Below are positions 16,882 through 40,600 of a stretch of 64,000 bases of DNA, piece by piece. The translations under genes were made by a program, and so were the position numbers. The notes below the pieces were generated by a model that did no database searches, was not told where the DNA came from, and saw only the letters and a list, made by a program, of their open reading frames with translations. Numbering within the stretch: the stretch's first letter is position 1; each line of letters opens with the position of its first letter. Source of the DNA: Lepus europaeus (lineage: Eukaryota; Chordata; Mammalia; Lagomorpha; Leporidae); the NCBI RefSeq assembly GCF_033115175.1, contig NW_026909196.1, positions 4,526,001-4,590,000 on the forward strand, given 5' to 3'.

Positions 16882-16900
16882 TGGCGCGCCAACGTGACTG
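16882..16900 (+). other. Primer binding site, tRNA-Lys type, imperfect
   Basis: TGGCGCGCCAACGTGACTG starts two bases after the LTR. It resembles the tRNA-Lys(1,2) primer site used by many class II retroviruses, with one extra G and 3' mismatches. The position and the TGGCGC start support the call; which tRNA-Lys isoacceptor it matches is uncertain. Confidence 0.65.
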
Positions 16901-18328: not shown

Positions 18329-18849
18329 TGTAGTGGAATGAGAAGGCCATGCCAAGGTGGCCACTGGCAAGCGAGTGTCAGTTAGTCAGGAATGGCTTTG
18401 AAACCCACCTGGCTTTGGAAAATGCCTAGCAACAGGCTGTGATTGGATGGCTCTGGAAACTGCCTGGCGACACGCTGTGATTGGATGGATTTGAAACTGC
18501 CTGGCGACAGGCTGTGATTGGATGGCTCTGGAAACTGTCTGGCAACAGGCTGTGATTGAATGGATTTGAAACTGCCTGGCGACAGGCTGTGATTGGATGG
18601 CTGTGGAAACTGCCTGGCAACAGGCTGTGATTGGTTGGGGTATGGACCGCCCCTTGACCAGATTGGCTGGTCTTGGCTATATAAGCTGTTGAGCCAACTG
18701 TAATAAACGAGTCTGCAGGCTGCTCGCCACAAGCCTGCTCTCACCCGACTCCCGGGGTCTGTGTGTTGACTCCGCGCCTCTTGCCCCCACCACGCTGCTC
18801 TTCTCAGAAATGAACCCACTGCAACATTGTTGAAAAATCAATGGCAACA
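18329..18849 (+). repeat. 3' LTR of the class II provirus
   Basis: 521 bp, the same structure as the 5' LTR (six U3 repeats, TATATAAG, AATAAA). Visible differences from the 5' LTR are AGAAATG against AGAAACG near 18810 and ATCAATGG against ATCAACGG near 18840. Both are C to T at CpG sites, typical of methylated cytosine decay. Confidence 0.9.
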
Positions 18850-21596: not shown

Positions 21597-24500
21597 CGGA
21601 CTTTATTTTTTAGAATGTCGTTTATCGGGGAACATTTTATTTTGAGCTTGGATACCGCAATTGGTTCCAAATGGAGACACCAGCTGAACATATTCATATT
21701 TTCTAGGGAGAAAGCTAGGAGAACTGTGGTAAACAAACATGATATTGCTCACGAATTCCACACAAGTTTGTCTGGATATGACTGGAAGAAACCGGAAATA
21801 TCCGGTTGTGTTTTGGCTAACTCAATCCCAAATATTGTGAAAGCCTCTGTGTTTGTGTTTTATGGGTATTATCGATGGACTTTATTGTTTTCAATATTTT
21901 CTCAGGGAACATTTAATTTTGTATCGTAGTAACACTAATTGGTTAATCATGGGGACACCAGCTCTACACATTCATATTTTCTAGGGAGACTGCTAGAGGA
22001 ATTACGCAAACAAACATGATATTTCTGTTTGTATAGATGACATTTTATGCACTTGCCAAACTTAAAGACTTTGCTTTTCTCCAAAACCATTTTTCTGTGA
22101 TTTTCTCGGTACACTTCATATGAATTGCACACAAGTTTGTCTGGATATGACTGGATACAACCGGAAATATGCGGTATTGTTTTGGATAACTCAATCCCGG
22201 ATATTGTTACAGCCCCTGTGTTTGTGTATTCCTGATATTAACCACGGACTTTATTGTTTGAATGCTTTTTACCAGGGAACATTTAATTTTGTACTGTTGA
22301 AACACTAATTGGTTAAACATGGGGACACCAACTCTACACATTCATATTTTCTAGGGAGAAAGCTAGAGGAACTGCAGCAAACAAAAATGATATTTCTCTT
22401 TGTATCTATGAGATTTTATGCACTTTCCTAACGAAAAGACTTTGCTATTCTCAAAAACCATTTTTACTGTGATTTTCTCCGTCCATTGCATACATATTCC
22501 ACAACAGTTTGTCCGGATATGACTGGATGAACCTGGAAATATCCGGTTTTGTTTTGGCTAAATCAATCCCAAATATTGCCCCAGCCACTTTGGCTAACTC
22601 AATCTTAAATATTGTGAAAGATTCTTTTTTTGTGTGTTTTCTGGAGATTATCGATGCACTTTATTGTTTTGAATAATTTTATCAGGGAACATTTAATTTT
22701 GTACCGTAGAAACACTAATTGGTTCCACATGGAGACACCAGCTCTACACATTCATATTTTCCAGGGAGACAACTAGAGGAACTGCGGCAAAAATGATATT
22801 TCTATTTGTATAGATGACATTTTATGCACTTGCCTAATGAAAAGACTTTGCTTTTCTCCAAAACCATTTTACTGTGATTTTTTTGGTTCATTGCATACGA
22901 ATTCCACACCACTTTTTCCGGATATGACTGGATGAAAACAGAAATATCCGGTTATGTTTTGGCTAACTAAATTTGAAATATTGTGAAAGCCTCTGTGTTG
23001 GTGTTTTCTGGATATTATCGATGGACTTTATTGTTTTGAATGTTTTTATCAGGGAACATTTAATTTTGTACCGTTGAAACACTAATTAGTTAATCATGGG
23101 GACACCAGCTCTACACATTCGTATTTTCTAGGGAGAAAGCTAGAGGAACTGCGGAAACAAACATGATATTTCTGTTTGTATCTATGATATTTTATGCATT
23201 TGCCTAAAGAAAAGACTTTGCTATTCTCCAACACCATTTTTACTGTAATATTCTCGGTCCATTGCATATGAATTCCACAACAGTTTGTCCGGATATGACT
23301 GGATGAAACCGGAAATATCCGGTTTTGTTTTGCTAACTCAATCCCAAATATTGCTCCAGCTACTGTTTTTGTTTTTTCTGGGTATTATCAACGGACTTTA
23401 GTGTTTGGAATGTTTTTTTATCGGGGAACATTTTATTTTGAGCTTGGATACAGTAATTAGTTGCACATGGAGAAACCAGCTGAACATATTCGTATTTTCT
23501 AGGGAGAAAGCTAGAGGAACTGCGGCAAACAAACATGATATTTCTGTTTGTATCGATGACATTTTATGCACTTGCCTAACGAAAAGACTTTGCTTTTCTG
23601 CAAAGCCATTTTTACTGTGATTTTTTCGGTCCATTGCATGCGAATTCCACAGCACTTTGTCTGGATATGACTGGATGAAAACAGAAATATCCGGTGGTGT
23701 TTTGGCTAACACAATCCGAAATATTGTGAAAGCCACTGTGTTTGTGTTTTCTGGATATTATCGATGGACTTTATTGTTTTGAATGTTTTTATCAGGGAAC
23801 ATTTAATTTTGTACCGTTGAAACACTAATTGGTTCATCATGGGGACACCAGCTCTACACATTCGTATTTTCTAGGGAGAAAGCTAGAGGAACTGCGGAAA
23901 ACAAACATGATATTTCTGTTTGTATAGATGACATTTGATGCACTTGCCTAACTAAAACACTTTGCTTTTCTCCAAAACCATTTTTACTGTGAATATCTCA
24001 GTCCATTGCTTTCGAATTCCACACCAGTTTGTCCGGATATGACTGGATGAAACCGGAAATATCCAGTATTGTTTTGGCTAACTCAATCCGAAATATTGTG
24101 AAAGCCTCTGTGTTGGTGTTTTCTGGATATTATCAACGGACTTTAGGTTTTTGAAAGTTTTGTATTGGGGAATATTTTATTTTGAGCTTGGATACAGTAA
24201 TTTGTTCCAAAAGGAGACACCAGCTGAACAAATTTGTAATTTCTAGGGAGAAAGCTAGAGGAACTGTGGCAAACAAACATGATATTTCTGTTGGTATCGA
24301 TGACATTTTATGCACTTGCTTATCGAAAAGACTTTGCTTTTCTCCAAAACCATTTTTACTGTGATTTTCTCGGTCCATTGCATATGAATTCCAAACCAGC
24401 TTTTCCGGATATGACTGGATGAAAACAGAAATATCCGGTGGTGGTTTGGCTAACTCAATCTGAAATATTGTGAAAGACTCTGTGTTTGTTTTTTCTGGAT

Positions 24501-27010
24501 ATTATCGATGGACTTTATTGTTTTGAATATTTTAATCAGGGAACATTTAATTTTGTACCGTTGAAATACTAGTTGGTTCTTCATGGGGACACCAGCTCTA
24601 CATATTCGTATTTTCTAGGGAGAAACCTAGAGGAACTGCGAAAAACATACATGATATTTCTGTTGGTATAGATGACGTTTTATGCACTTGCCTAATGAAA
24701 AGACTTTGCTATTCTCCAAAACTATTTTTACTGTGATTTTCACGGTACATTGCATACGAATTCCACACCAGTTTGTCCGGATATTACTGGATGAAACCGG
24801 AAATATCCGGTATTATTTAGGCTAACTCAATCCGAAATATTGTGAAAGCCTCTGTGTTTGTGTTTTCTGGGTATTATCAACGGACTTTAGTTTTTTGAAT
24901 GTTTTTTATTGGGGAACATTTTATTTTGAGCTTGGATACAGTAATTCGTTCCACAAGGATACACTAGCTGAACATATTCATATTTTCTAGGGAGAAAGCT
25001 AGAGGAACTGTGGCAAACAAACATGATATTTCTGTTTGTTTAGATGACATTTTATGCACTTTCCTAACGAAAAGACTTTGCTTTTCTCCAAAACCATTTT
25101 TACTGTGAATTTCTCTGTCCATTGCATACGAATTCCACACCAGTTTGTCCGGATATGACTGGATGAAAACAGATATATCCGATGGTGGTTTGGCTAACTC
25201 AATCTGAAATATTGTGAAAGCCTCGGTGTTTGTGTTTTCTGGATATTATCGATGGACTTTATTGTTTTGAATATTTTTATCAGGGAAGATTTAATTTTGT
25301 ACCGTAGAAACACGCATTGGTTCATCATGGGGACACCAGCTCTACACATTCGTATTTTCTAGGGAGAAAGCTAGAGGAACTGCGGCAAACAAACATGATA
25401 TTTCTATTTGTCTAGATGACATTTTATGCACTTGCCTAACGAAAAGACTTTGCTGTTCTCCAAAACCATTTTTACTATGATTTTCTCGTTCCATTGCATA
25501 TGAATTTCACACCAGTTTGTCTGGATATGACTGGAGGAAACCGGAAATATCCAGTATTTTTTTGTGTAACTCAATCCGAAATATTGTGAAAGTCTCTGTG
25601 TTGGTGTTTTCTGGATATTATCAACGGACTTTAGGTGTTTTAATTTTTTTTGGGGGGGACAATTTATTTTGAGCTTAGATACAGTAATTCGTTCCACAAG
25701 GAGACACCAGCTGAACATATTCGTATTTTTTAGGGAGAAAGCTAGAGGAACTATGGCAAACAATCATGATATATCTGTTTGTATCGATGACATTTTATGC
25801 ACTTGCCTAACGAAAAGACTTTGCTATTCTCCAAAACCATTTTTACTGTGATTTTCTCGGTCCATTGAATACGAATTCCACACCAGTTTTTCCGGATATG
25901 ACTGGATGAAAACAGAAATATCAGGTGGTGGTTTGGCTAACTAAATTCGAAATATTGTGAAAGCCTCTGTGTGTTTTCTGGATATTATCGATGGACTTTA
26001 TTGTTTTGAAATTTTTTATAAGGGAACATTTAATTTTGTACCGTAGAAACACTAATTGGTTCATTATGGGGACACCAGCTCTACACATTTGTATTTTCTA
26101 GGGAGAAAGCTAGAGGAACTGCGACAAAGAAACATGATATTTCTCTTTCTATAGATGACATTATACGCACTTCCATAACGAAAAGACTTTGCTGTTCTCC
26201 AAAACTATTTTTACTGTGATTTTCTCGGTGCGTTGCATATGAATTCCACACCAGTTTGTCCAGATATGATTGGATGAAACCGGAAATATCCGGTTGTGTT
26301 TTGGCTAACTCAATCCGAAATATTGTGAAAGCCACTGTGTTTGTGTTTTTTGGGTATTATCGATGGACTTTAGTGTTTTGAATGTTTTTTATCAGGGAAC
26401 ATTTAATTTTGTACCATTGAAACACTAATTAGTTCATAATGGGGACACCAGCTCTTACATTCGTATTTTCTAGGGAGAAAGCTAGAGGAACTGTTGCAAA
26501 CAAACATGATATTTCTCTTTGTATGGATGGCATTTTATGCACTTGCCTTACGAAAAGACTTTGCTGTTCTCCAAAACTCTTTTTACTGTGATTTTCTCGG
26601 TCCATTGCATATAAATTCCACAACAGTTTGTCCGGATATGACTGGATGAAAACAGAAATATCCGGTTGCGTTTTGGCTAACTCAATCCGAAATATTGTGA
26701 AAGCCTCTGTGTTTGTGTTTTCTGGATATTATCAACGGACTTAATTTTTTCAATGTTTTTTATAGGGGAACATTTTATTTTGAGCTTGGATACACTAATT
26801 AGTTGCACATGGAGACACCAGCTGAACATATTCGTATTTTCTAGGGAGAAAGCTAGAGGAACTGTGGCAAAGAAACATGATATTTCTGTTTGTCTAGATG
26901 ACATTTTATGCACTTGCCTAACGAAAAGATTTTGCTTTTCTCCAAAACCATTTTTACCCAGGATTTCTCGGTCAATTGCATATGAATTCCACACCAGTTT
27001 GTCCGGATAT
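21597..27010 (+). repeat. Diverged satellite, partly in an alternating two-monomer pattern
   Basis: About 14 monomers in plus orientation, each with many private changes. Two types alternate. Type A has GAGCTTGGATACAGTAATT and CACCAGCTGAACATATTC; type B has GTACCGTTGAAACACTAATT and CATGGGGACACCAGCTC. A or A-like monomers lie near 21640, 23440, 24180, 24920, 25670 and 26780; B near 21925, 22290, 22700, 23060, 23810, 24555, 25300, 26040 and 26410. From 23440 to 26040 they strictly alternate, so the repeat unit there is a dimer of about 744 bp. No gene. The right end is the insertion point of a class I provirus. Confidence 0.9.
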
Positions 27011-27587
27011 TGAGAGAGAAGGCAGGATGGGGTTAAAATGGAGTTGCTTGGCCAACTGCATATTGTTCTGCTTTTGTACAAAATGCTTTGGCTGGCAAAA
27101 TGCTTTTTTAAGATAACTAGACTTTAGCTGACCTTGTAACATGTGATGATTGTGCTAATGCCTTTATGAGATAATTGAGCATGTGATAATTGTTTTAAGT
27201 TTTAAAAAAACCCACAAAAACAGACGTTGATTGGAAATGTACCCAACCTATGTCATGATGACCCCGTGTTTGTGCTTGCTCAAGGATTTTGTCCCCTCAC
27301 CCTGGAAAAACCCATTATCTTGTGATAATTCGTCATGCTGCGGTTTATCTTGTGATTTTTGGTAATGCTATGGAGATATGCTAATGTTGTGGTTTTAAGG
27401 CTTAAATACTCTGGGAGGTTGATGATCGGGGCCTCTCTTCTCACACGACACTAGAGGGTGTTGTTGTGTTTTGAGAGAGCCCATCTGCGCAGATGTAATA
27501 AACTTCCTCATGCACTTGCAGCGATTGGACTGGAATTCGTGTTTCTGGGGTCGGTAGAAGTGTGAGATACCTTTCGGGGGTCTTACA
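27011..27587 (+). repeat. 5' LTR of the class I provirus
   Basis: Begins TGAGAGAG and ends GTCTTACA. A probable TATA-like TTAAATAC lies at about 27402-27409 and the poly(A) signal AATAAA is at 27497-27502, so U3 is about 430 bp. U3 contains several short related motifs (ATTGTGCTAATG, TTGTGATAATT, TTGTGATTTTTGGTAATG), some resembling C/EBP half-sites. Confidence 0.92.
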
Positions 27588-27591
27588 TTCT

Positions 27592-27609
27592 TGGGGGCTC
27601 GTCCGGGAT
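27592..27609 (+). other. Primer binding site for tRNA-Pro
   Basis: TGGGGGCTCGTCCGGGAT is the standard tRNA-Pro primer site of gammaretroviruses and many class I elements. It starts four bases after the LTR. It appears exact, so reverse transcription could have been primed normally. Confidence 0.93.
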
Positions 27610-27644
27610 TCGAGACCCCAGACCCACGCTCCATCTTCCAATCG

Positions 27645-27653
27645 GAGGTGAGT
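27645..27653 (+). promoter_or_regulatory. Leader splice donor
   Basis: GAG followed by GTGAGT at 27648-27653 is a near-consensus 5' splice site, about 60 bp after the LTR and upstream of gag. Gammaretroviruses use a leader donor to make env RNA; here it could join to the acceptors before the captured genes at 30474 and 31705. Confidence 0.75.
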
Positions 27654-27734
27654 TTCTTCTGTTCCGTGTATTGTCTTTTGTGAGTTTTATTGGTGTTTGC
27701 GTTTAAGGGCGGTGTTTCACTGTCCATCTCCCCG

Positions 27735-28384
27735 GGGCGCCTGGCGTACCGGTGTTTATGTGTTTGTATGAAATTTATTTCCCCGGGGCGCCTGGCGTAC
27801 CGGTGTTTGTTTCTGTATAAAATTGTGCCTGCGCAGGACCTGTATCTGTAGCGAGCCAGTAGTAGGTAAGGACAGACGTGTCCAAGACCCCTGACTCGGG
27901 CCCTGGAGGACGCTCCAGCGGTGGTCTCGGGAGAGGGCTGGTGGCAGCAGCCGCTCCCGTCGGAAGTTTTGGTTTCAGTTCGGGGGAGGCTGCCTAGGCA
28001 GTTCTCCCACCAGAAAAAGGTCTCCTTCCCCGGGAGAGGGCTGGTGGCAGCAGCCGCTCCCGTCGGTGGTTTCAGTTTTGTGGGGAAGTTTTGGTTTCTT
28101 CTTTTCCGGGAGAGGGCTGCTGGCAGCATCCGCTCCCGTTGGTGGTTTCAGTTTTGTCTCGGTTTGTTGTTGCCCGCAGGTCTCGTCTTATTAGGGCGCG
28201 CAGGTCTTGTTCCATTGTTGTGTGCAGTGTTTTAGTGAGAGGTTTTCTTCCCCGGGAGAAGAGGGCTGGTGGCAGCAGCCACTCCCGTCTGAAGTTTTGG
28301 TTTCAGTTTTGTCTCGGTCTTCTTCCCCGGGAAAAGGGCTGGTGGCAGTAGCCACTCCCGTCGGAAGTTGTGGTTTCGGTTCTG
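27735..28384 (+). repeat. GC-rich tandem repeats in the proviral leader
   Basis: Two direct repeats of ~42 bp start at about 27739 and 27781 (CCCCGGGGCGCCTGGCGTAC, then CGGTGTTT). Five imperfect repeats follow at about 27926, 28035, 28105, 28249 and 28325, each with CGGGAGAGGGCTGGTGGCAG or a close variant, then CTCCCGT and TTTCAGTTTTG. They lie between the splice donor and gag, the region that in gammaretroviruses holds the packaging signal and structures for translation initiation. A role in packaging is inference. Confidence 0.8.
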
Positions 28385-28488
28385 TCTTGGTTTTGCGCGC
28401 AGTGTCTTTTGTGAGTTTTGTCATTTGTGAATTTTGTGATTGTTTCTGTGTTCTAATATACTCTCCTGATTTGCCTTTCCCCTCCAAC
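28339..28488 (+). other. In-frame upstream extension of gag, possible CUG-initiated glycoGag-like leader
   Basis: The gag frame is open upstream to a TAG at 28192-28194. It holds an in-frame CTG at 28339-28341 that would add 50 residues. Within these is a hydrophobic run (VLVLRAVSFVSFVICEF continuing to CVLIY), suited to a membrane anchor. Murine-type gammaretroviruses make a glycosylated Gag from an upstream CUG with such an anchor. No ATG exists in this extension. The parallel is suggestive only. Confidence 0.4.
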
Positions 28489-29169
28489 ATGGGACAGGAA
28501 TTAACTACACCTTTAAGTCTTACTTTAGATCATTGGAGAGAGGTCCGGGAGCGGGCCCAAAACTTGTCTATAAGAGTGCAGAAGAAGAACTGGACAAGTT
28601 TTTGTACATCCGAGTGGCCAGACTTAAACATCGGGTGGCCACGGGATGGGACTTTTGACTCTCGAATTATTTTACAGGTGAAGAGCCAGGTCTGCAGGGG
28701 AAGTAAAGAAGGGCGCCCAAATCAAGTGCCTTACATCTTTGTGTGGGAGGACCTGGCGAAAAACCCCCCAGACTGGGTAAAACCTTTCCTCCTTTCCAAC
28801 AGGGCGGTGGCAGAGCTCGATCCTACTATACCCACCACCGCCCTGAGGATGAAGCCCAGTTCTGAGTTGTCAGCAGTTGCCCTGGGGGTGGACCTAGTAT
28901 CGGAAATTGCAGATCCATTACAGGAATTGGACACCCTCAAACCTGAAAAACCCTCAACTCCTCCAGGCAGGCAGGAAGACCTCTTTGATATTCCACCACC
29001 TTATTCCCCTCGCCTCCTTAGGAGGGCACCTTATATCCCCCGCTTCCCAAAGAGGCCCGCAGTGCCCTTTTTGGAAACCAGAAGAGAAATAGGGGAGGAA
29101 GAATCCGATGAAATGGAGAAAGGAGGACCCCCGGCCCGTTCTAACTGGCCGCCCTTCTCCACCATATAA
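28489..29169 (+). pseudogene. gag: Truncated gag (matrix and p12-like region)
   Basis: 226 codons from ATG at 28489. The start MGQ gives the N-myristoylation glycine of gammaretroviral matrix. A typical matrix segment follows (TPLSLTLDHW, NWTSFCTSEWP, GWPRDGTFD, the WVKPFL region). A proline-rich stretch with the PPPY late-domain motif (IPPPYSPR) is at residues about 168-175, where p12 lies. Capsid should follow, but the frame ends with a stop at 29167-29169 after an acidic/Pro-rich stretch (EEESDEMEKGG). No capsid or zinc-knuckle sequence is present. The frame is otherwise open and could give a membrane-targeted matrix-p12 protein. It is also open upstream to 28195, without an ATG. Confidence 0.85.
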
Positions 29170-29854
29170 CTGGGATCACAAGCCCTGACAGGACTTGCAG
29201 GGCCTGTTTTACTAACATTAATTTTACTAACTGGAACTCTGTAGGAGACTCAGACTCTATTGCCAGACTCTCCTGAGGAGCTTAGCTGAAGGGGGTTAAA
29301 GTTATTTAGTTAAAACAGAGGAAGTTTAAAATGGGCTAAGAAAAAGAAACTAACTAGGATTCTGGCCACCACAGTTAACAGAAAGCAGAGTAAGGGAGAA
29401 TCAGAATAAGACAGGGAACCCGGAGACTGATAAAAGCACAGAGAAGTGCCCAAAAGGACAAGTCTGCCTAAGGTCCGGCTAACAACGAGAATCTAGTGGT
29501 GTACGACTGCCACCCGAGACTGAACTGACCGAAACGGCCCCTGCAAGACGACAAGAGAGGACGACAGCAGCGGAGTGGTGAGACTGGGCGACAGCAGCCC
29601 CTCGGCCCCTCCCTCGTTGGGACACGTGTGGTCCGACATGGTTGGGGATAATGTTGGGGATGCGGGCTCTGCCCAGGTTCTTGTGGATAATGCTCCATCA
29701 CCCCCTGCGGTGTCTGGGATGGGCCCACGCGATATCCCCCTAGCATCCAGAGTTCAACGGAGATAACAGTGGGAGACGGCCGAATGAGGACAGTGGTCTG
29801 GGTTTCCACCTTCAACCCCCCGAGGACTCTGCTCGACAGGCAGGGCTGATCGCT
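29170..29854 (+). other. Proviral sequence without an assignable gene
   Basis: About 685 bp after truncated gag. Just past the gag stop, in the same frame, is a hydrophobic stretch (LTGLAGPVLLTLILLTGTL, 29180-29243) that faintly resembles the membrane span of a class I Env transmembrane protein. This is weak and could be chance. The rest has no domain I can name; 29470-29850 is GC-rich with short open frames on both strands. No protease or polymerase motif is seen. Confidence 0.45.
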
Positions 29855-30145
29855 ATGGACCATGCACTCCGTGCAGCTAAGAAAAAGGAGCGGGTGGAGA
29901 TGCACAAAAACAGCAGGTACGCTCTCACCACCACCCACGGGGAATTCAAAATGGACATATCGACCAAGAAGAAAAATTGCGCCAATGTTTCCCTGATTTG
30001 GACTACCAAAGGTACTGGGTCAGACACCGGGCCGGCTTTCGTCTCCAGGGTAAGTCAGATGGTGGCACAGGTGTTAAAGATAAAAAAGTTACATTGTGTT
30101 TATAGGGCTAGCCAGAGGTGGCCAGGGTGCAGGGAGTTTAGCTAG
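29855..30145 (+). pseudogene. pol: pol remnant: end of RNase H joined to integrase core
   Basis: A 96-codon frame. Residues about 5-31 (RAAKKKERVEMHKNSRYALTT region) match the C-terminal part of gammaretroviral RNase H, where a (D/N)SRYA motif is expected; the position normally Asp before SRYA is Asn here. The segment from about residue 49 (TKGTGSDTGPAFVSRVSQ) matches the integrase core around its second catalytic aspartate. The sequence between them is missing, as are reverse transcriptase upstream and the rest of integrase downstream. It is a scar of pol with no expected enzyme activity, but it shows that the CEBPE-like insert replaced sequence from late pol onward. Confidence 0.75.
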
Positions 30146-30472
30146 AGAAAACTTTGTTTAGCTAGGGGAGGTTTTAACCAAGTAAATAACGGAGAACTGG
30201 CACTAGGGACTGGGTCGAGATGTCGCCGATGGCTTTTATTTGGGGGTTTATAATACCATGGGTGTTAGACTATATTTGTTTTCCCAATTGATCTGGTCTG
30301 GGCTGGATGCGGAGGTGTGGATGCAGCGACAGGCACCGCACTATAACAAACTGGGCAGTGCTGGCTTGCGCTGCGTTCAAGCTTCTGTATATAAACTGCA
30401 TATGGAAACCCACACTCGCGGTAGATCGATTGGGGCCAAGTAGTAATTCTTTTGTAACTCCCCTACCCTGCC
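30146..30472 (+). other. Proviral sequence between the pol remnant and the first captured gene
   Basis: Not identified. A short frame at 30220-30291 encodes a 23-residue hydrophobic peptide (MSPMAFIWGFIIPWVLDYIC...). It lies where env would start and looks like a signal peptide, so it may be an env leader remnant. The rest to 30460 has overlapping short frames with no recognisable domain. It ends in a pyrimidine-rich splice acceptor. Confidence 0.4.
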
Positions 30473-30475
30473 AGG
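30455..30475 (+). promoter_or_regulatory. Splice acceptor before the CEBPE-like frame
   Basis: The pyrimidine-rich ACTCCCCTACCCTGCCAG ends at 30474, 11 bases before the ATG at 30486. It has a polypyrimidine tract and CAG/G junction. Joined to the leader donor at 27648, it would put the CEBPE-like ATG first on a subgenomic RNA, the way env is normally expressed. Confidence 0.7.
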
Positions 30476-30485
30476 CTTTGCTTAA

Positions 30486-31151
30486 ATGTTCGCTTCCTGG
30501 GGCTTCGGAGGCTTCCAAGAGGAGCAGTCCCCGGCTTTGCTCTCCGACCTCTCTGCCATGGAGTCGGCACCTGACAGCAGCCCAGGAAGCTACGACCCTG
30601 GGACTGTGGCTGTGAAGGAGAAGCTCCGGGAGAAGCTCCGGGGGCCAGAGGGCAGCCGAGATGGCAGCCGGGGCAGCTACAATCCCCTGCAGTACCAGGT
30701 GGCACACTGCGGGCAGACGGCTGTGCACCTGCCTCCGACCTTGACGGCACCAGGCCAGCCCCTTTGTGTCCCTGAGGCCCCCTTGGCCACCACTGTGCCC
30801 CCTGTGCACCTGCCCCCAACCCTGACGGCACCTGGCCAGCCCCTGTGCGTCCCTGAGGCCCCCTTGACCACCACCGTGCCCCCCAGCAGCCCCCTTGAGG
30901 CGCCCTCCTTGGCTGACCCCTCGCAGGAGGGCAAGAAGGCAGTGAACGACAGCCTGGAGTATCGGCTGCGGCGGGAGCGCAACAATATCGCCGTGCGCAA
31001 GACCAAGTGGCGCATCCTGGAAATACAGCAGAACATGGCTGAGAATGAGCAGCTGCGCAGGCGCGTGGAGCAGCTTACGCAGGAGCTAAATATCCTGCAC
31101 AGGTTTTTAAAAGCTGTTATAAATTTAATGTCATTGGTTACTAAACATTAG
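30486..31151 (+). CDS. CEBPE-like: Captured CEBPE-like bZIP protein with altered basic region
   Basis: 221 codons from ATG 30486. Residues 31-105 follow the central part of C/EBP-epsilon ([52 protein letters not shown]). Residues 150-205 are a C/EBP bZIP ([34 protein letters not shown]). C/EBP-epsilon is a nuclear factor of granulocyte maturation that dimerises through its leucine zipper. Here the N-terminal activation region is mostly absent. A 27-residue unit is duplicated (80-106 and 107-133). The signature Ser-Arg after NNIAVRK is Thr-Lys (173-174). About four residues are missing before the zipper and about four more near residue 183. Leucines 190, 197 and 204 keep heptad spacing. After about residue 205 the host sequence ends and 16 unrelated residues follow. 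Dimerisation with weak or no DNA binding is inferred. No intron is visible, as expected for capture from mRNA. Confidence 0.9.
30723..30884 (+). repeat. 81-bp tandem duplication inside the CEBPE-like frame
   Basis: Two adjacent 81-bp copies encode the 27-residue unit starting [20 protein letters not shown]. They differ by a few bases (for example GCACCAGGC against GCACCTGGC, and GCCACC against ACCACC, giving Ala to Thr). The length is a multiple of three, so the frame is kept. Single host C/EBP-epsilon proteins have this unit once, as far as I recall, so the duplication arose in the captured copy. Confidence 0.85.
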
Positions 31152-31688
31152 GGACATAAAAGAAAAGAGTATTGTTGGTAAGGGGTTAAATAGAGAGAGA
31201 AAGAGCTTTTTACATAAGAAAAGGACATGGTTTGTAAGGATCCGGATGGCTAGTTTACTCTAGACTAAATGGAAATGGTAAAATGTTTAAAGTAAGTCGA
31301 AGAGGGTGTGTGAAAGTCACAAAAGGTATTTGGGTCAAGGGATGTGTTTTTGTCTCTGTTGTATTTTCTGTTTTTAAATTCTGATGCCTTTTTGTAATTT
31401 TTCTATCCCGCGGAACATGCTTTCCCTACTCTGTAGATTTGCTTTTGTGCGCACAAAAATCGGCTGCAAGACACAGTGATGTGTTTGTAAACCTGTGTCT
31501 GGCAGCAGATTTGGTGGGCGCATGGGGAAGCGGCCGGCTGCCGCCTATCAGCTTAAACTCGGATTTTAACTTTACAACACCAAGGTTTCAACTGGACGGT
31601 CTTTTAAGAGTCTCATCTTGAGTGGAGTGGCTCTTGGAATCCGCTCGGGATGGGACTTCTGAAGACTGCTTAGCATTCGTACCCGGCT
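31152..31688 (+). other. Proviral spacer between the two captured genes
   Basis: About 540 bp. AT-rich to ~31420, then mixed. A second possible acceptor, TTTCCCTACTCTGTAG, ends near 31437. A 60-codon frame (31439-31621) starts without ATG and has no recognisable domain. It may hold remains of env or of the untranslated part of a captured mRNA; I could not assign it. Confidence 0.5.
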
Positions 31689-31706
31689 CCCCTCCTTTGT
31701 TGCAGG
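31686..31706 (+). promoter_or_regulatory. Splice acceptor before the JDP2-like frame
   Basis: GCTCCCCTCCTTTGTTGCAG ends at 31705 with a strong polypyrimidine tract and CAG/G. The first ATG of the JDP2-like frame is 62 bases downstream (31768) with no ATG between. The same arrangement as before the first captured gene argues that each was expressed from its own spliced RNA. Confidence 0.7.
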
Positions 31707-31767
31707 ATAAAAGAAAAAGTTTCGTGCTCCCACACTCGTTTCAGACCCTGTGCCTGGCCGGCCTGCT

Positions 31768-32322
31768 ATGATGCATGGGCAGATTCCTGACCCTTTTGTG
31801 ACCACGGGCTCTCTGCCAGGGCAAGACACCCTGACCAGACGGCCCGGCTCGGCTCTGATCGTGAAGGAGCTGAAATGCATTGGGACCATAATCGTGCCCT
31901 TGCTGGAGATAAAGCTGGGCATGCCTGACGCAGCCGTGGACACCAGCACCGAGGTCACCACCAAGGACTTGAGAAAGAAAGAAGTGGTAAAGGAGGCGGA
32001 GGATGGGAAAGACGCCCCCGCCAACGGCAACGCTAACGAGGTAAACCTGGACAGGAGGCCCCAACCTGTAGAAAGTGAGCTCGCCGAACAGGAGGAGCGG
32101 AGGAAAAGGCGCTTGGAACAGAACAAGGTGGCGTGGGCCCGGAGGAAGGAGCGCACGGAGACCCTGCAGCGGGAGTTTGAGTGGCTGGAGTTCAGAAACG
32201 CAGTACTAAAGATGCAGGTCAGGGAACTGGAGCAGGAGCGGCAGCAGCTGATTCTCGTATTGAACCGGCGCCGCCCCACCTGCATTGTCCGCACCGACAG
32301 CGTCCCTGTCCCTTGGACCTAA
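31768..32322 (+). CDS. JDP2-like: Captured JDP2-like bZIP protein containing a PTMA segment
   Basis: 184 codons from ATG 31768 (a second ATG follows at 31771). Residues 1-51 resemble the start of JDP2 (GQIPDP, VTTGSLPG, a reduced LEIKLG). Residues 52-92 match the start of prothymosin alpha. Residues 97-180 return to JDP2 (RRPQPVESEL, EERRKRR, ERTETLQRE, ERQQLILVLN, RPTCIVRTDSV). The CIVRTDSV tail favours JDP2 over ATF3. JDP2 is a nuclear AP-1/ATF-family repressor that dimerises with Jun and ATF proteins. The zipper is complete: leucines 133, 140, 147, 154 and 161 at exact heptads. The basic region is damaged: the N-x2-A-A-x2-C-R signature reads NKVAWARRK (119-127), and about four residues are missing before the zipper. 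The usual C-terminal tail is replaced by four residues. Dimerisation without normal DNA binding is the inferred activity. Confidence 0.9.
   Translation: MMHGQIPDPFVTTGSLPGQDTLTRRPGSALIVKELKCIGTIIVPLLEIKLGMPDAAVDTSTEVTTKDLRKKEVVKEAEDGKDAPANGNANEVNLDRRPQPVESELAEQEERRKRRLEQNKVAWARRKERTETLQREFEWLEFRNAVLKMQVRELEQERQQLILVLNRRRPTCIVRTDSVPVPWT
31921..32046 (+). other. PTMA-like: Prothymosin alpha (PTMA) segment inside the JDP2-like frame
   Basis: 42 codons starting at an in-frame ATG read MPDAAVDTS, TTKDLRKKEVV, EAEDGKDAPANGNANEVN. This follows the N-terminal 40 residues of prothymosin alpha, a small acidic nuclear protein linked to chromatin and cell proliferation, and also the source of thymosin alpha-1. 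It starts exactly at the PTMA start codon and stops before the long acidic run. JDP2 sequence lies on both sides in one frame. PTMA is highly expressed and has many retrocopies, so it is a plausible template for a reverse-transcriptase switch. Confidence 0.85.
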
Positions 32323-32411
32323 TATTAATGTGGTGCAAATGGTATAGCTCATCCCCATAATTTCACTTAAATTTTAAGATTAAAATTAGTACAAAAAGAA
32401 AAGGGGGGAAA
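32323..32411 (+). other. 3' untranslated part and polypurine tract of the class I provirus
   Basis: The JDP2-like frame ends at 32322. A short AT-rich stretch follows, then AAAAAGAAAAGGGGGGAAA (ending at 32411), a polypurine tract directly before the TGAGAGAG of the 3' LTR. Confidence 0.88.
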
Positions 32412-32988
32412 TGAGAGAGAAGGCAGGATGGGGTTAAAATGGAGTTGCTTGGCCAACTGCATATTGTTCTGCTTTTGTACAAAATGCTTTGGCTTGCAAA
32501 ATGCTTTTTTAAGATAACTAGACTTTAGCTGACCTTGTAACATGTGATGATTGTGCTAATGCCTTTATGAGATAATTGAGCATGTGATAATTGTTTTAAG
32601 TTTTAAAAAAACCCACAAAAACAGAAGTTGATTGGAAATGTACCCAACCTATGTCATGATGACCCCGTGTTTGTGCTTGCTCAAGGATTTTGTCCCCTCA
32701 CCCTGGAAAAACCCATTATCTTGTGATAATTCATCATGCTGCGGTTTACCTTGTGATTTTTGGTAATGCTATGGAGATATGCTAATGTTGTGGTTTTAAG
32801 GCTTAAATACTTTGAGCGGTTGATGATCGGGGCCTCTCTTCTCACACGACACTAGAGGGTGTTGTTGTGTTTTGAGAGAGCCCATCTGCGCAGATGTAAT
32901 AAACTTCCTCATGCACTTGCAGCGATTGGACTGGAATTCGTGTTTCTGGGGTCGGTAGAAGTGTGAGATACCTTTTGGGGGTCTTACA
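32412..32988 (+). repeat. 3' LTR of the class I provirus
   Basis: 577 bp with the same start and end as the 5' LTR; AATAAA at 32898-32903. Eight substitutions from the 5' LTR by eye (for example GCTTGC for GCTGGC, AGAAGTT for AGACGTT, CTTTTGG for CTTTCGG near the end), no indels. It is followed by ATAT, the target duplication. Confidence 0.92.
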
Positions 32989-32992
32989 ATAT

Positions 32993-35900
32993 GACTGGAT
33001 GAAACTGGAAATATCCGGTTGTGTTTTGGCTAACTAAATTCGAAATATTGTGAAAGCCTCTGTGTTTGTATTTTCTGGATATTATCGATGGACTTTATTG
33101 TTTTGAATATTTTTTATCAGGGAACATTTAATTTTGTACCGTTGAAACACTAATTGGTTCATCATGGGGACACCAGCTCTACAAATTCGTATTATCTAGG
33201 GAGAAAGCTAGAGGAACTGCGGCAAAAAAACATGATATTTCTGTTTGTATCGATGATATTTTATCTACTTCCCTTATGAAAGGACTTTGCTTTTCTCCAA
33301 AACCATTTTTACTGTGATTTTCTTGGTCCATTGCATACAAATTCCAAAAAGTTTGTCCGGATATGACTGGATGAAACCAGAAATATATGGTTTTGTTTTG
33401 GCTCACTCAATCCCAAATATTGCTCCAGCCACTGTGTTTGTTTTTTCTGGATATTATCAACGGACTTTAGGTTTTTGAATGTTTTTTATTGGAGAACATT
33501 TTATTTTGAGTTGGATACAGTAATTCGTTCCACAAGGAGACACTAGCTAAACATATTCGTATTTTCTAGGGAGAAAGCTAGAGGAACTGTGGCAAACAAA
33601 CATGATATTTCTGTTTGTATAGATGACATTTTATGCACTTGCCTAACGAAAAGACTTTGCTTTTCTCCAAAACCATTTTTACTGTGAATTTCTCGGTCCA
33701 TTGCATACGAATTCCACACCAGTTTGTCCAGATATGACTGGATGAAAGTGGAAGTATCTGGTTTTGTTTTGGCTAACTCAATTCCAGATATTTCTAAATC
33801 CTCTGTTTGTGCATTCCTGATATTATCTATGGACTTCATTGTTTTGAACATTTTTTATCAGGGAACATTTAATTTTGTAATTGGAAACACTAATTGATTC
33901 CACATGGAGACACCAGCTCTACACATTCATATTTTCTAGGGAGAAAGCTAGAGGAACTGCGGCAAACAAACATGATATTTCTGCATGTATAGATGACATT
34001 TTATGCAATTGCCTAACGAAAAGACTTTGCTATTCTCCAAAACCATTTTTACTGTGATATTCTCGGTCCATTGCATAAGAATTCCACACCAGTTTGTCCG
34101 GATATGACTGGATGAAAACAGAAATATCCGGTATTGTTTTGGCTAACAAAATCCAAAATATTGTGAAAGCCTATGTGTTTGTGTTTTCTGGATATTACCG
34201 ATGTTCTATATTGTTTTGAATGTTTTTATCAGGGAGCAATTAATTTTGTACCGTTGAAACACTAATTGGTTCATAATGGGAAAACGAGCTCTACACATTT
34301 GAATTTTCTAGGGAGAAACCTAGAGGAACTGCGGCAAACAAGCATGATATTTCTGTTTGTATAGATGACATTTTATGCACTTGCCTAACAAAAAAACTTT
34401 GGTTTTCTCCAAAACCATTTTTACTGTGGTTGCCGCGGTCCATTTCATAGAATTCCACACTAGTTTGTCTGGATATGACTGGATGAAACCAGAAATATCC
34501 GGTTGTGTTTTGGCTAACTCAATCCCAGATATTGCTACAGCCTCTGTGTTTGTGTATTCCTGATATTATCCACGGACTTTATTTTTTTGAATATTTTTCA
34601 GGGAACATTTAATTTTGTACTGTTGAAACACTAATTGGTTCACAATGGGAAAACCAGCTCTACACATTTGTATTTTCTAGGGCGATTGCTAGAGGGACTG
34701 CAACAAACAAACATGATATTTCTGTTTGTATGGATGACATTTTATGCTCTTGCCTAAAGAAAAGACTTTGCTTTTCCCCGAAACAATTTTTACTCTGATT
34801 TTCTCGGTCCATTGCATACGAATTCCACACCAGTTTGTCCAAAAGACTGGATGAAACGGGAAATATCCGGTTTTGTTTTGGCTAACTCCATCCCAGATAT
34901 TGCTACAGCCTCTGTGTTTGTGTTTTCTGGATATTACGATGGACTTCATTGTTTTGAATGTTTTTTATCGGGGAACATTTTATTTTGTGCTTGGAAACAC
35001 TAATTGGTTCCACATGGAGACACCAGATCTACATATTCGTATTTTCTAGGGAGAAAGCTAGAGGAACTGCGGCAAACAAACATGGTATATCTGTTTGTAT
35101 AGATGACATTTTATGCTCTTGCCTAAGGAAAAGACTTTGCCTTTCTCCAAAACGATTTGTACTGTGATTTTCTCGGTCCATTGCATACGAATTCCACACC
35201 AGCTTGTCCGGATATGACTGGATGAAACCAGAAATATCCGGCTGTGTTTTGGGTAACTCAATCCCAGATATTGTTACCGCCTCTGTGTTTGTGTTTTCTG
35301 GATATTATCGATGGACTTATTGATTTGAATGTTTTTATCAGGGAACATTTAAATTTCTACCATTGAATCACTAATTGTTTCCACATGGAGATACCAGCTC
35401 TACACTTTCTTATTTTCTAGGGAGAAAGCTAGAGGAACTGCGGCAAACAAATATGATATTTCTGTTTGTATAGATGACATTTTATGCACTTGCCTTTCGA
35501 AAAGACTTTGCTGTTCTCCAAAACCATTTAATTGTGATTTTCTCGGTCCATTGCATACGAATTCCACACCAGTTTGTCCGGATATGACTGGATGACACCA
35601 GATATATCTGGTTTTGTTTTTGCTAACTCAATTCCAGATATTGCCTCATCCTCTGTTTGTGCATTCCTGATATTATCTATGGACTTTATTGTTTTGAATG
35701 TTTTTTATCAGGGAACATTTAATTTTGTACCATTGAAGCACTAATTGTTTCCACATGGAGACACCAGCTCTACACATTCGTATTTTCTAGGGAGAAAACT
35801 AGAGGAACTGCGGAAAACAAACATGATATTTCTGCATGTATAGATGGCATTTTATGCACTTGCCTAAAGAAAAGACTGTCCTTTTCTCCAAAACCATTTT

Positions 35901-36801
35901 TACTGTGGTTTTCTCGGTCCATTGCATATGAATTCCACACCAGTTTGTCCGAATATGAATGGATGAAAGCAGAAATATCTGGTTGTGTTTTGGCTAACCC
36001 AATCCGAAATATTTTGAAAGCCTATGTGTTTGTGTTTTCTCGATATTATCGATGTTCTATATTGTTTTGAATGTTTCTATCAGGGAACATTTAATTTTGT
36101 ACCGTTGAAACACTAATTGGTTCACAATGGGAAAACCAGCTCTACACATTTGTATTTTCTAGGGAGATTGCTAGAGGAACTGCGGCAAACAAACATGATA
36201 TTTCTGTTTGTATAGATGACATTTTATGCTCTTGCCTAAAGAAAAGACTTTGCTTTTCCCCAAAACAATTTTTACTCTGATTTTCTCGGTCCATTGCATA
36301 CGAATTCCACACCAGTTTGTCCAAAAAACTGGATGAAACTGGAAATATCCGGTTTTGTTTTGTCTAATTCAATCCCAGATATTGCTACATCCTCAGTGTT
36401 TGTGTATTCCTGATATTATCCACGGACTTTATTTTTTTGAATTTTTTTTCAGGGAACATTTAATTTTGTGCTTGGAAACACTAATTGGTTCCACATGGGG
36501 ACACCATATCTACATATTCGTATTTTCTAGGGAGAAAGCTAGAGGAACTGCGTCAAACAAACATGGTATTTCTGTTTGTATAGATGACATTTTATGCTCT
36601 TGCCTAAGGAAAAGACTTTGCCTTTCTCCAAAACGATTTGTACTGTGATTTTCTCGGTCCATTGCATACGAATTCCACACCAGTTTGTCCGAATATGACT
36701 GGATGAAACCAGAAATATCCGGCTGTGTTTTGGCTAACTCAATCCCAGATATTGTTACTGCCTCTGTGTTTGTGTTTTCTGGATATTATCGATGGACTTT
36801 A
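32993..36801 (+). repeat. Diverged satellite monomers
   Basis: About ten monomers in plus orientation resume within the monomer that the class I provirus split (GGATAT before it, GACTGGATG after it). Types with GTACCGTTGAAACAC, GAGTTGGATACAG and GTGCTTGGAAACAC are mixed without the strict alternation seen upstream. Two monomers near 34640 and 36120 share the variants GGGAAAACCAGCTC and TTGTCCAAAA, about 1.48 kb (four monomers) apart, suggesting a local four-monomer duplication. No gene. Confidence 0.9.
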
Positions 36802-37400
36802 TTTGCCACGCCCAAAGCTGTGATTCCAGCGTAGCAAAATGTTGTTGTGTTTGTGGTCTAAGCTTGGAGGGTTGGAGTGTGAGCTCTGTGGAGTGGAGCC
36901 TCGGGTGGTTCCTGTGCAGTCCGCGGTTGTGATGACCCCCGACTCACATAAAATGAGCTGGAGACGTGCTTGCTGGTGGCTGCTGAAGCAGTGTGTTTCT
37001 GCAATTGTAGTGATCTTGATATGCATCATCTACCTGCTTTGTTTGCACTTTGTAGTTTCGCCACATAGTAAAGGAATAGCATAGCATGATCAGAACACAG
37101 AAAATCAGATTGAGAAAATCAACATTTCTAACATTGATGTTTCACAAGACTTGGTAAAGAATATCACGGACTTTGGTCCTCCAGTAGTTAGGGCAATGTT
37201 TGAGGCACTATTACAGTTAAATGAGAATAGTACATTGGGTTCTTTCCTAGGTGAAGTGGAACAACAGGAATTGTTAATAGAAACTTCAGTAACCCCAGAA
37301 GAAATTAGGCTTGAAAGGCTTATTGGAAATGAGCACTCGAACCCTAATCAAAAGTAAAAACAACTATTAGATAAAATTCCCAACCGCTCCCTGCCGGGAG
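36802..37400 (+). other. Unidentified insert next to the assembly gap
   Basis: Satellite stops inside the motif GACTTTATT and non-satellite sequence starts (TGCCACGCCCAAAGC). Base composition is more balanced than the satellite. It contains one interrupted coding-like frame, and the end is lost in the N run, so the target duplication, termini and family cannot be judged. Confidence 0.7.
36839..37357 (+). pseudogene. Interrupted frame with a membrane segment, family unknown
   Basis: One reading frame of about 172 codons, open apart from a single TAG at 37082-37084. Basic residues (SWRRACWW, from about 36956) precede a hydrophobic span (VSAIVVILICIIYLLCLHFVV), giving a signal-anchor profile. 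After the stop the same frame continues with an Asn/Ile-rich, then acidic stretch (KINISNIDV, NITDFGPP, EVEQQELL) and ends at TAA 37355-37357. It has possible N-glycosylation sites (NIS, NIT, NST). Long preserved frame on both sides of one stop suggests a recently coding sequence, perhaps a viral envelope leader or a membrane protein. I do not recognise it. The upstream start is unclear; ATG 36839 is the first in frame. Confidence 0.5.
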
Positions 37401-37600: not shown

Positions 37601-40600
37601 AATGTGTAGAGCTGGTGTCTCCATGATGAACCAATTAGTGTTTCCAAGCACAAAATTAAATGTTCCTTCATAAAAACATTCAAAACAATAAAGTTCGTGG
37701 ATAATACCAGTAATTCACAAACACAGAGGCTGTAGCAATATCTGGGATTGTGTTACTCAAAACCCAACCGGATATTTCCGGTTTCATCCAGGCATATCCG
37801 GACAAACTAGTGTGGAAGTCGTATGCAATGGACCGAGAAAATCACAGTGAAAATGGTTTTGTAGAAAAGCAAAGTCGTTTCGTTAGGAATGTGCATAAAA
37901 TGTCATCTATACAAACAGAAATGTCATTTTGTTTGTCGCAGTTCTAGCTTTCTCCCTAGAAAATAGGAATGTGTAGAGCTGGTGTCTCCATGTGGAACCA
38001 ATTAGTGTTTCAATGGTACAAAATTAAATGTTCCCAGATAAAAAATATCCAAAACAAAAAAGTCCGTTGATAATATCAGGAATACACAAACACAGAGGCT
38101 TTCACAATATTTTGGATTGAGTTAGGCATAACACAACCGCATATTTCTTTTTTCCTCCAGTCATATCTTGACAAAGTGTTGTAGAATTCGTATGCACTGG
38201 ACTGAGAAAATCACAGTAAAAATGATTTTGGAGAATAGCAAAGTCTTTTCGTTAGGCAAGTCCATAAAATGTCATCAATACAAACAGAACTGTCATGTTT
38301 CTTTGTTGGATTTCCTCTAGCTTTCTCCCTAGAAAATACAAATATGTAGAGCTGGTGTCTCCATGTGGCACCAATAACTCTATCCAAGTTCATAATAAAA
38401 AGTTCCCCGATAAAAAACATTCAAAACAATAAAGTCCGTTGATAACATCTAGAAAACACAAACACAGAGGCTTTAGCAATATATGGGATTGTGTTACTCA
38501 AAACAAAACCGGATATTTCCCGTTTCATCCAGTCATATCCATTAAACTGGTGTGGAATTTGTAAACAATGGACCGAGAAAATCACAGTAATAATGGTTTT
38601 GTAGAAAAGCAAAGTCTTTTCGTTAGGCAAGTGTATAAATTATCATCTATACAAACAGAAATATCATGTTTGTTTGTTGCAGTTCCTCTAGCTTTCTCCC
38701 TAGAAAATAGGAATGTGTATAGCTGGTGTCTCCATGTCGAACCAATTAGTGCTTCAATGGTACAAAAAAATGTTCCCCGATAAAAGCATTCAAAACAATA
38801 TAGTCCATTTATAATATCCAGAAAACACAAACAAAAGAGGCTTTCACAATATTTCGGATGGAGTTAGCCAAAACATACTGGATATTTCTGTTTTTATCCA
38901 GTCATATCCGGACAAATTGGTGTGGAAATCGTATGCAATGGACCGGGGTAATCGCAGGAAAAAGGTTTTGGAGAAAAGCAAATTCTTTCGTTAGGCAACC
39001 GCATATAATGTCACCTATACAAACAGCAATATCATGTTTGTTTGCTGCAGTTTCTCTAGCTTTCTCCCTAGAAAATACGAATCTGTAGAGCTGGTGTCCC
39101 CATGATGAACCAATTAGCATTTCAACAGAACAAAATTAAATGTTCCCTGATAAAAACATTCAGAACAATAAAGTACATCGACAATATCCAGAAAACACAA
39201 ACACAGAGGCTGTAGAAGTATCTGGGATTGAGTTAGTAAAAAAAAAAAAAAAAGGATATTTCTGGCTTCTTCCAGTCATATCCAGACAAAGTTGTGTGGA
39301 ATTCGTATGCAATGGACCGAGAAAATCACAGTAATAATGGTTTTGGAGAAAAGCAAAGTCTTTTCATTAGGCAAGTAGATAAAATGTCATCTATACAAAC
39401 AGAAATATGATGTTTGTTTGTCGCAGTTCCTCTAGCTTTCTCCTTGAAAATACAAATATGTAGAGCTGGTGTCTACATGTGGAATCAATTAGTGTATCTA
39501 AGCTCTAAATTAAATGTTCCCTTGATAAAAACATTCAAAACAATAAAGTTCATCGATAATATCCAGAAAACACAAACACAGAGGCTTTCACAATATTTTG
39601 GATGTAGTTAGCAAAAAAAAACTGGATATTTCTGCTTTCATCCAGTCATATCCGCAGAAAGTGGTATGGAATTCGTATGCAATGGACCGAGAAAATCACA
39701 GTAAAAATGGTTTTGGAGAAAAGCAAAGTCTTTTCGTTAGGCAAGTGCATAAAATATCATCTATAAAAACAGAAATATCATGTTTGTTTGCCGCAGTTCC
39801 TCTAGCTTTCTCCCTAGAATATACGAATGTGTACAGCTGGTGTCTCCATGTGGCACCAAATCGTGTTTCGAAGCACAAAATTAAATATTCCCTGATAAAA
39901 CATTCAAAACAATAAAGAAATTGATAATATAGAGAAAACACAAACACAGAGGCTTTCACAATATTTCGGATTGAGTTAGCCAAAAAATAAACAACAACAT
40001 ATATTTCAGGTTGCATCCAGTCATACCCTGACAAAGTGGTGTGGAATTCCTATGAAATGGACTGAGGAAATGAGAGTAAAATTGGTTTTGGAAAAAAGCA
40101 ACATCTTTTCGTTAGCCAAGTGCATAAAATGTCATCTATACAAACAGAAATATCATGTTTGTTTGCGGCAGTTCCTCTAGCTTTCTCCCTAGAAAATATG
40201 AATGTGTAGAGCTGGTGTCTCCATGGGGATCAAATTAGTGTTTCTACGGTACAAAATTAAATCTTCCCTGATACAAATATTCAAAACAATAAAGCACATC
40301 GATAATATCCAGAAAACACAAACACAGAGGCTGTAACAATATCTGGGATTGAGTTAGCCAAAACAGAACAGGATATTTCTGGTTTCATCCAGTGATATCC
40401 GGACAAAATGGGGTGGAATTACTATGCAATGGACCAAGAAAATCACAGAAAATATGGTTGTGGAGAAAAGCAAAGTCTTTTCCTAGGGCAAGTGCATAAA
40501 ATGTCATCGATACAAACAGAAATATCACGTTTGTTTTCCGCAGTTCATTAAGCTTTCTCCCTAGATAATACGAATGTGTGCACTGGTGTCTCCATGTGGA

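What the first reader, a model, noticed from the sequence alone, without database searches (positions are those of the whole stretch)
27011..32988. Endogenous gammaretrovirus that captured two host bZIP transcription-factor genes
Seen: complete proviral frame (LTR, tRNA-Pro primer site, matrix-type gag, pol scrap, polypurine tract, LTR) with two non-viral open frames in place of most of pol and env. One follows C/EBP-epsilon, the other JDP2. Known: acute transforming retroviruses carry host genes such as jun, fos and maf, but these are usually single genes in exogenous viruses. Inference: this is a fossil, replication-defective transducing virus that entered the germ line with a two-gene cargo. 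As far as I recall, C/EBP-epsilon acts in granulocyte maturation and JDP2 also affects myeloid differentiation, so both cargos could have acted in the same blood lineage. I know of no described element with this pair.
Basis: partly seen in the sequence, partly recalled or inferred. Interest (0 to 1): 0.97.

Follow-up and report, generated by a model that had tools for sequence, protein, structure and literature searches.

The report
Hare retroviruses carrying captured regulator genes
This stretch of hare DNA is a defective retrovirus carrying pieces of three host genes, and it belongs to a young family of such viruses whose captured gene-regulator reading frames have stayed open, which suggests the viruses used them.

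Summary
The interpretation must be enlarged. (1) A third host gene, prothymosin alpha, lies in frame inside the JDP2 frame. (3) Cargo varies: 6 of 6 copies of one CEBPE-bearing group carry ferritin light chain-ARID3A instead of JDP2; other relatives carry CEBPE or JDP2 in front of env. (4) CEBPE was apparently captured once, from spliced mRNA, in the integrase region. (5) The cargo evolved under purifying selection (omega 0.44 for each; non-coding control 0.85-1.10), and 9 of 9 coding gap lengths are multiples of three. (6) One relative has LTRs identical over 585 of 585 bases. Both proteins keep zippers but lost activation or DNA-binding parts, so I infer virus-encoded bZIP antagonists (about even odds). 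Host-gene capture by ERV lineages has precedents (crocodilians, human ERV-Hako): a new variant of a known kind.

The parts
27007..27010 (+). 5' copy of the target duplication, ATAT
27011..27587 (+). 5' LTR, 577 bp
   Evidence: 8 differences in 577 to the 3' LTR
27592..27609 (+). primer binding site, tRNA-Pro type
   Evidence: sequence; tRNA assignment recalled
27646..27653 (+). candidate splice donor AG|GTGAGT in the leader
   Evidence: motif; AG|GTAAGT at the same place in 6 of 6 relatives looked at
28489..29169 (+). matrix-only gag frame
   Evidence: Gag_MA E=8.3e-44; matches residues 1-227 of a relative's gag
29816..30459 (+). scraps of RNase H (29816-29938) and integrase (29967-30106, 30196-30459)
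   Evidence: tblastn with a relative's pol frame, E=1e-6 and 3e-15
30448..30474 (+). candidate splice acceptor 11 bases before the CEBPE start codon
   Evidence: kept in 27 of 31 loci printed (one of these with TAG for CAG); absent in L014-L016 and L050 and in the env-bearing L056, L057, L059
30486..31151 (+). CEBPE-derived frame, 221 aa
   Evidence: joined across the host intron
30721..30882 (+). 81-bp tandem duplication within the CEBPE frame
   Evidence: 90% identical copies
31685..31705 (+). candidate splice acceptor before the JDP2 frame
   Evidence: kept in 20 of 21 loci printed and in L060
31768..32322 (+). JDP2-derived frame with internal prothymosin segment, 184 aa
31921..32041 (+). 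prothymosin-alpha segment, in frame
   Evidence: Pfam PF03247 E=1.1e-10, PDB 2l9i E=3.2e-5; junctions
32395..32411 (+). polypurine tract
   Evidence: sequence
32412..32988 (+). 3' LTR, 577 bp
32989..32992 (+). 3' copy of the target duplication, ATAT

Best explanation
The window holds one defective member of a hare-genome family of gammaretrovirus-type endogenous retroviruses that carry host-derived regulator genes. Shown: CEBPE sequence lacking its intron is joined into the integrase region, and in relatives stands in front of env. JDP2 is found in front of env in one relative (L060) and downstream of CEBPE in many; the latter copies carry a prothymosin segment, and another group has ferritin light chain-ARID3A in that place. 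The CEBPE and JDP2 frames evolved under purifying selection across copies. Copies are dispersed with 4-bp target duplications, and cargo-free relatives with similar LTRs exist, one of which was opened and has gag, pol and env domains. Inferred: the defective genomes were copied with proteins supplied by such relatives. Each cargo frame is translated from its own spliced RNA. The viral CEBPE lacks the N-terminal activation part, and many copies also lack basic-region residues; the viral JDP2 lacks basic-region residues; both keep the zipper. They would pair with host C/EBP and AP-1 family proteins and hold them inactive, keeping infected (perhaps blood-lineage) cells undifferentiated or damping stress and immune transcription. 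My odds: about 0.95 for family, cargo and selection, 0.7 for help in trans plus spliced expression, 0.5 for antagonism.
For: Three host genes in the window copy. CEBPE: 37 of 37 long matches stop-free; JDP2: 32 of 33. Omega 0.44 and 0.43 (2dlnL 41.2 and 25.6), with other frames and non-coding controls near or above 1. Coding gap lengths multiples of three 9 of 9, non-coding 15 of 69. Shared 5' junction and host breakpoint of CEBPE. Exons joined. Other cargo: ferritin-ARID3A in 6 of 6 of L011-L016; CEBPE or JDP2 before env. 4-bp duplications 4 of 4. Cargo-free relative with gag, protease, RT, RNase H, integrase and env domains. Basic-region loss: JDP2 21 of 21 plus L060; CEBPE 19 of 31.
Against: No RNA or protein evidence was available. 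The loci tested are the best-scoring ones, which favours open frames; one (L023) lost its start codon, one long JDP2 match has a stop, and two of six ferritin-ARID3A frames are disturbed. The acceptor before CEBPE is missing in L014-L016, L050 and the three env-bearing loci looked at. Env-bearing CEBPE forms (L056, L057, L059) keep basic region and hinge, and 12 of 31 other loci keep the basic region, so loss of DNA binding is not general for CEBPE. Copies on unplaced contigs may be duplicates; the C455 copy is.
Confidence: 0.8

Rival explanations
1. Host-domesticated genes: the frames are kept because hares use them, for instance against the same viruses.
For: Open frames and purifying selection; NCBI carries gene models for several copies.
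Against: Selection is seen across many dispersed, LTR-flanked copies rather than at one locus. Several gene models drop parts that the DNA contains: P0003 and P0004 lack most or all of the prothymosin segment that L025 and L018 have.
Confidence: 0.08
2. Passenger cargo: the host pieces are neutral stuffing of a defective element that kept its size for packaging, and frames are open because the copies are young.
For: Some copies are young (LTRs 585/585, 99.86%); transduced pieces can be incidental (recalled).
Against: Omega well below 1 between copies, omega about 1 next to the genes, and frame-keeping gaps in 9 of 9 coding cases show selection during replication.
Confidence: 0.07
3. CEBPE and JDP2 entered the provirus after integration as separate L1-type retrocopies.
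For: A short JDP2 stretch recurs on both sides of the prothymosin insert, as a target duplication would.
Against: The same junctions recur at many loci; no poly(A) tract follows either frame in the window.
Confidence: 0.02

Closest known systems
CrocERV29 (KIT-ligand) and CrocERV31 (nectin3) of crocodilians, PMC4299795 (passages read, section 15)
   Same: Multicopy endogenous retrovirus lineages with a captured host mRNA, between pol and env (KIT-ligand) or in place of env (nectin3), with purifying selection on the cargo
   Different: Single cargo each; here five host genes in exchangeable sets, transcription regulators among them, in a mammal, with very young copies
Human ERV-Hako with SUSD6 or SPHKAP pieces, PMC11905727 (passages read)
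   Same: A mammalian ERV group with a tendency to hold host-gene parts, with defective forms
   Different: Group II ERV and ancient; a gammaretrovirus-type family here, with open cargo frames under selection
Walleye dermal sarcoma virus rv-cyclin, PMC3185748 (passages read)
   Same: Host-like regulator as an accessory gene of a retrovirus, acting on transcription
   Different: Epsilonretrovirus of fish; rv-cyclin is under 20% identical to host cyclins; here the source genes are traceable exon by exon
Acute transforming retroviruses with one or two cellular genes (v-src, v-jun, v-fos, erbA/erbB; recalled)
   Same: Intronless host coding sequence replaces viral genes; defective genomes depend on related viruses
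   Different: Known as exogenous isolates; here many germ-line copies, and transforming activity is unknown
HTLV-1 HBZ, a viral bZIP protein (recalled)
   Same: A retroviral bZIP protein that pairs with host AP-1 and C/EBP-type factors
   Different: HBZ is antisense and not a recent capture; no relationship was tested

Membership tests
Gammaretrovirus-type (class I) ERV | tRNA-Pro primer site and 4-bp target duplication | tested here: met
   duplications in 4 of 4 proviruses with both ends inspected; tRNA assignment recalled
Gammaretrovirus-type (class I) ERV | Gag_MA p15 / p30, MLV-type integrase, TLV_coat env | tested here: met
   Window: MA and integrase scraps only; p30, integrase and env domains in relatives
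Transducing (acute-type) retrovirus | intronless host coding sequence in place of viral genes | tested here: met
   CEBPE intron absent; JDP2 exons contiguous; no match to p30, protease, RT or env in the window provirus
Transducing (acute-type) retrovirus | cell transformation | not testable with these tools
   no experiment possible
Host-gene-capturing ERV lineage (CrocERV29/31, ERV-Hako) | cargo shared by several independent insertions | tested here: met
Host-gene-capturing ERV lineage (CrocERV29/31) | purifying selection on the cargo | tested here: met
L1 processed pseudogene | poly(A) tail and own target duplication around the cargo | tested here: not met
   none seen around CEBPE or JDP2 by reading; junctions shared between loci
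Functional CEBPE / JDP2 proteins | complete basic region in register with the zipper | tested here: not met
   Window CEBPE lacks four basic-region and four hinge residues; JDP2 lacks four basic-region residues. Env-bearing CEBPE forms do keep both.

The most novel reading that the evidence does not exclude
Hares host a recently, perhaps still, mobile complex gammaretrovirus system. Viruses with a CEBPE-derived accessory gene between pol and env have given rise to helper-dependent genomes that exchange env for further host regulators (JDP2-prothymosin, ferritin-ARID3A), and selection has turned the captured factors into antagonists of the host's own transcription factors.
Probability: 0.45. 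Interest if true: 0.95.

Novelty: new variant of a known kind. Interest (0 to 1): 0.88.

Why it matters
Oncogene capture is known mainly from exogenous isolates (recalled), and how long captured genes persist and evolve as viral genes is open. This is a mammalian germ-line record with many copies, traceable source genes, several captures, cargo exchange and a measurable selection signal, in copies young enough to look for insertions that vary between living hares. It offers a natural set of altered CEBPE, JDP2 and ARID3A proteins, and suggests that several hare 'CEBPE-like' and 'JDP2-like' gene models are viral.

Tried and rejected
Rejected: independent retrocopies after integration; chance resemblance; a lone fossil; capture of CEBPE and JDP2 as a pair. 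The C455 copy was first counted as a separate insertion; it is the window's insertion duplicated, or another haplotype. L042 and L043, taken as LTR pairs, held only satellite between single LTRs.

Led nowhere: the ORF L045:3212-3553 at the CEBPE position matched nothing in Pfam at E up to 0.1 or in the PDB at E up to 0.1. The 420-bp upstream region was too gapped for a selection control (6-7 codons). A genome-wide count of the ferritin-ARID3A frame did not complete; six copies come from loci in hand. Rabbit, pika and other hare genomes were not available. Apart from rabbit JDP2 itself (P0086), no rabbit record was among 102 of 102 JDP2 hits or the 120 listed of 195 CEBPE hits, which does not show absence from the rabbit genome. 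Literature searches showed no description of this family in the listings; the library lacks preprints and most subscription papers.
Full report
CHECK OF THE OBSERVATION. The LTRs (27011-27587, 32412-32988) differ at 8 of 577 positions and are flanked by a 4-bp duplication, ATAT. The site without the insertion recurs in the surrounding 371-bp satellite. A tRNA-Pro-type primer site follows the 5' LTR and a purine tract precedes the 3' LTR. A matrix domain is open (Gag_MA, E=8.3e-44). Comparison with gag, protease-RT, RNase H-integrase and env frames of relatives finds matrix-type gag at 28465-29142, RNase H and integrase scraps between 29816 and 30459, and nothing else at E up to 1e-3; about 400 bases of RT of the relative were not in hand. 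The best named matches of the two frames are Lepus europaeus CEBPE-like and JDP2-like records, then mammalian CEBPE and JDP2.

A THIRD HOST GENE. The JDP2 frame is interrupted, in frame, by about 40 residues of prothymosin alpha (Pfam PF03247, E=1.1e-10; thymosin alpha-1, E=3.2e-5). The insert begins at or near a prothymosin start codon. A short JDP2 stretch recurs on both sides, and four bases at the right junction fit both partners (the prothymosin DNA used here is recalled). This fits a reverse transcriptase jumping to a second RNA and back, which is an inference. The CEBPE frame contains an 81-bp tandem duplication.

HOST AND FAMILY. The lengths of C455, C223, C21, C44, C373, C637, C19 and C554 equal the contig lengths given for eight L. 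europaeus proteins (P0002, P0005, P0003, P0004, P0107, P0104, P0110, P0109). Other hare proteins list contig lengths that I did not see among my loci, some close to but not equal to them, so the assembly version may differ. In this genome the CEBPE frame has 119 matches (150 of 206 candidates scored); 37 cover at least 205 of 221 residues and 37 of 37 have no stop. The JDP2 frame has 53 matches (76 of 76 candidates scored); 33 cover at least 179 of 184 residues and 32 of 33 have no stop. Unplaced contigs contain duplicates: the C455 copy has the window's own target site and flanks 99.2-99.8% alike. Long CEBPE copies nevertheless lie on many different large contigs (C1, C5, C9-C13, C17, C19-C21, C23, C27, C44). 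In 4 of 4 proviruses whose two ends I inspected there is a 4-bp target duplication.

CARGO EXCHANGE. Of 30 CEBPE loci with 1.5-kb flanks (L009-L038), 20 have a long JDP2 match downstream (one truncated), one a fragment and nine none. Six of those nine, L011-L016, carry a frame joining ferritin light chain and ARID3A (PDB E=6e-28 and 3.3e-69; Pfam; six of six; two of the six disturbed). L028 and L030 carry env-like sequence (by eye); in L023 I recognised nothing. Weaker matches proved to be env-bearing relatives. In L057 a CEBPE frame is followed by the start of env (TLV_coat E=0.0026, below Pfam's cut-off; the rest of env in L063 scores E=7.1e-167); L056 looks alike. In L059 the CEBPE frame follows integrase sequence (E=1.6e-4, below cut-off). 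In L060 a JDP2 frame without prothymosin runs into an integrase C-terminal piece and is followed by env (E=2.3e-5). The provirus containing L057 has LTRs identical over 585 of 585 bases. L044 and L045 have neither CEBPE nor JDP2 and a different gag region.

HOW THE GENES GOT IN. The host CEBPE intron (L039 1242-1685) is missing in the virus and the exons are joined. JDP2 is contiguous across host exons about 30 kb apart. The usual CEBPE types and the env-bearing ones (L056, L057, L059) share the integrase-derived bases before the start codon and a host breakpoint near L039:888; the diverged L058 starts at 907. One capture followed by different in-frame deletions is the simplest reading. The window and L040 CEBPE proteins are 59% and 62% identical to hare CEBPE, and 54-59% to pika and bear CEBPE over slightly different ranges. 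Among ARID3A records matching 46% of the ferritin-ARID3A frame, hare's is highest (82%); the first-listed row is an unverified sturgeon record at 70% over 44%, and two records reach 83% over shorter stretches.

SELECTION. A codon model on 27 distinct CEBPE and 17 distinct JDP2 sequences gives omega 0.44 and 0.43 and rejects omega 1 with 2dlnL 41.2 and 25.6. A second run gives 0.44 and 0.44 in frame. The other frames give 1.41 and 2.05 (CEBPE) and 0.95 and 2.24 (JDP2). The non-coding stretch between the genes gives 0.85, 1.10 and 1.00 (15 sequences, 152 codons); the upstream stretch was too short to use. Distinct gap lengths are multiples of three in 9 of 9 coding and 15 of 69 non-coding cases. 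L050 (different 5' part) was dropped from CEBPE and L019 (truncated) from JDP2, and identical sequences were counted once. The loci are the best-scoring ones, which favours open frames; L023 has lost its start codon. Omega averages the virus's replicating life and the time after insertion. The ferritin-ARID3A frame was not tested.

EXPRESSION AND FUNCTION (INFERRED). A leader donor AG|GTGAGT (AG|GTAAGT in 6 of 6 relatives) and a pyrimidine-rich acceptor 11 bases before the CEBPE start codon are present; the acceptor is kept in 27 of 31 loci printed (one with TAG). It is not found in L014-L016 or L050, nor in the env-bearing L056, L057 and L059. A second acceptor before JDP2 is kept in 20 of 21 loci and in L060. 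Host CEBPE residues 1 to about 52, which hold the N-terminal activation part (function recalled), are absent from the six viral forms aligned. Four basic-region residues are lost in 19 of 31 CEBPE loci and kept in 12; four hinge residues are lost in 31 of 31; the env-bearing forms keep both. JDP2 lacks four basic-region residues in 21 of 21 loci and in L060, and by eye keeps its zipper. I favour antagonism of host C/EBP and AP-1 factors at about even odds. Three cargo-free LTR pairs 8.1-8.2 kb apart have LTRs 94-99% like that of L040; the one opened has gag, protease, RT, RNase H, integrase and env domains. Such relatives are plausible suppliers of proteins in trans.

AGE. The window copy's 1.4% LTR divergence gives about 1.5-3 million years at recalled rates of 2.2-4.5e-9 per site and year. 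Other copies are younger: LTRs 99.86% (L040), 99.36% (C91) and 585 of 585.

KNOWN AND NEW. Host-gene capture by endogenous retrovirus lineages with selection on the cargo is on record for crocodilians (PMC4299795), and ERVs with host-gene parts for human ERV-Hako (PMC11905727). Searches listed nothing on this family. What differs here is the number and exchange of cargo genes, regulators among them, the env-bearing forms, and the youth of the copies.

Noticed in passing
window 1-15195, 22589-27010, 32989-36803, 37601-45667, 46943-63998: Most of the window is a 371-bp satellite array. LTRs of this family sit inside copies of the same satellite elsewhere (L042, L043), and the C91 provirus also lies in it.
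   Followed up: partly
window 16359-18628: A second small element: two identical 300-bp repeats 1970 bases apart with a 262-aa frame (17327-18115) that contains an integrase DNA-binding domain (E=7.3e-9); possibly a second non-autonomous ERV.
   Followed up: partly
window 19629-20336, minus strand: L1 ORF1-type frame, 235 aa.
   Followed up: no
L045 3212-3553: Open frame of 114 aa at the place of CEBPE in a cargo-different relative, without Pfam or PDB match; perhaps another captured gene.
   Followed up: partly
L058 (C23:24101000-24102500): A more diverged CEBPE-type frame (186 aa, bZIP_2 E=9.7e-5); matches with the same frame length also occur elsewhere on C23 and on C24 and C27.
   Followed up: partly
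L050 (C645): A CEBPE frame whose 5' part resembles the env-bearing type and 3' part the window type, followed by JDP2: looks like a recombinant.
   Followed up: no
P0108: A hare 'CEBPE-like' gene model ends in a histone H4-like tail (recognised from memory); perhaps a gene-model join, perhaps another capture.
   Followed up: no
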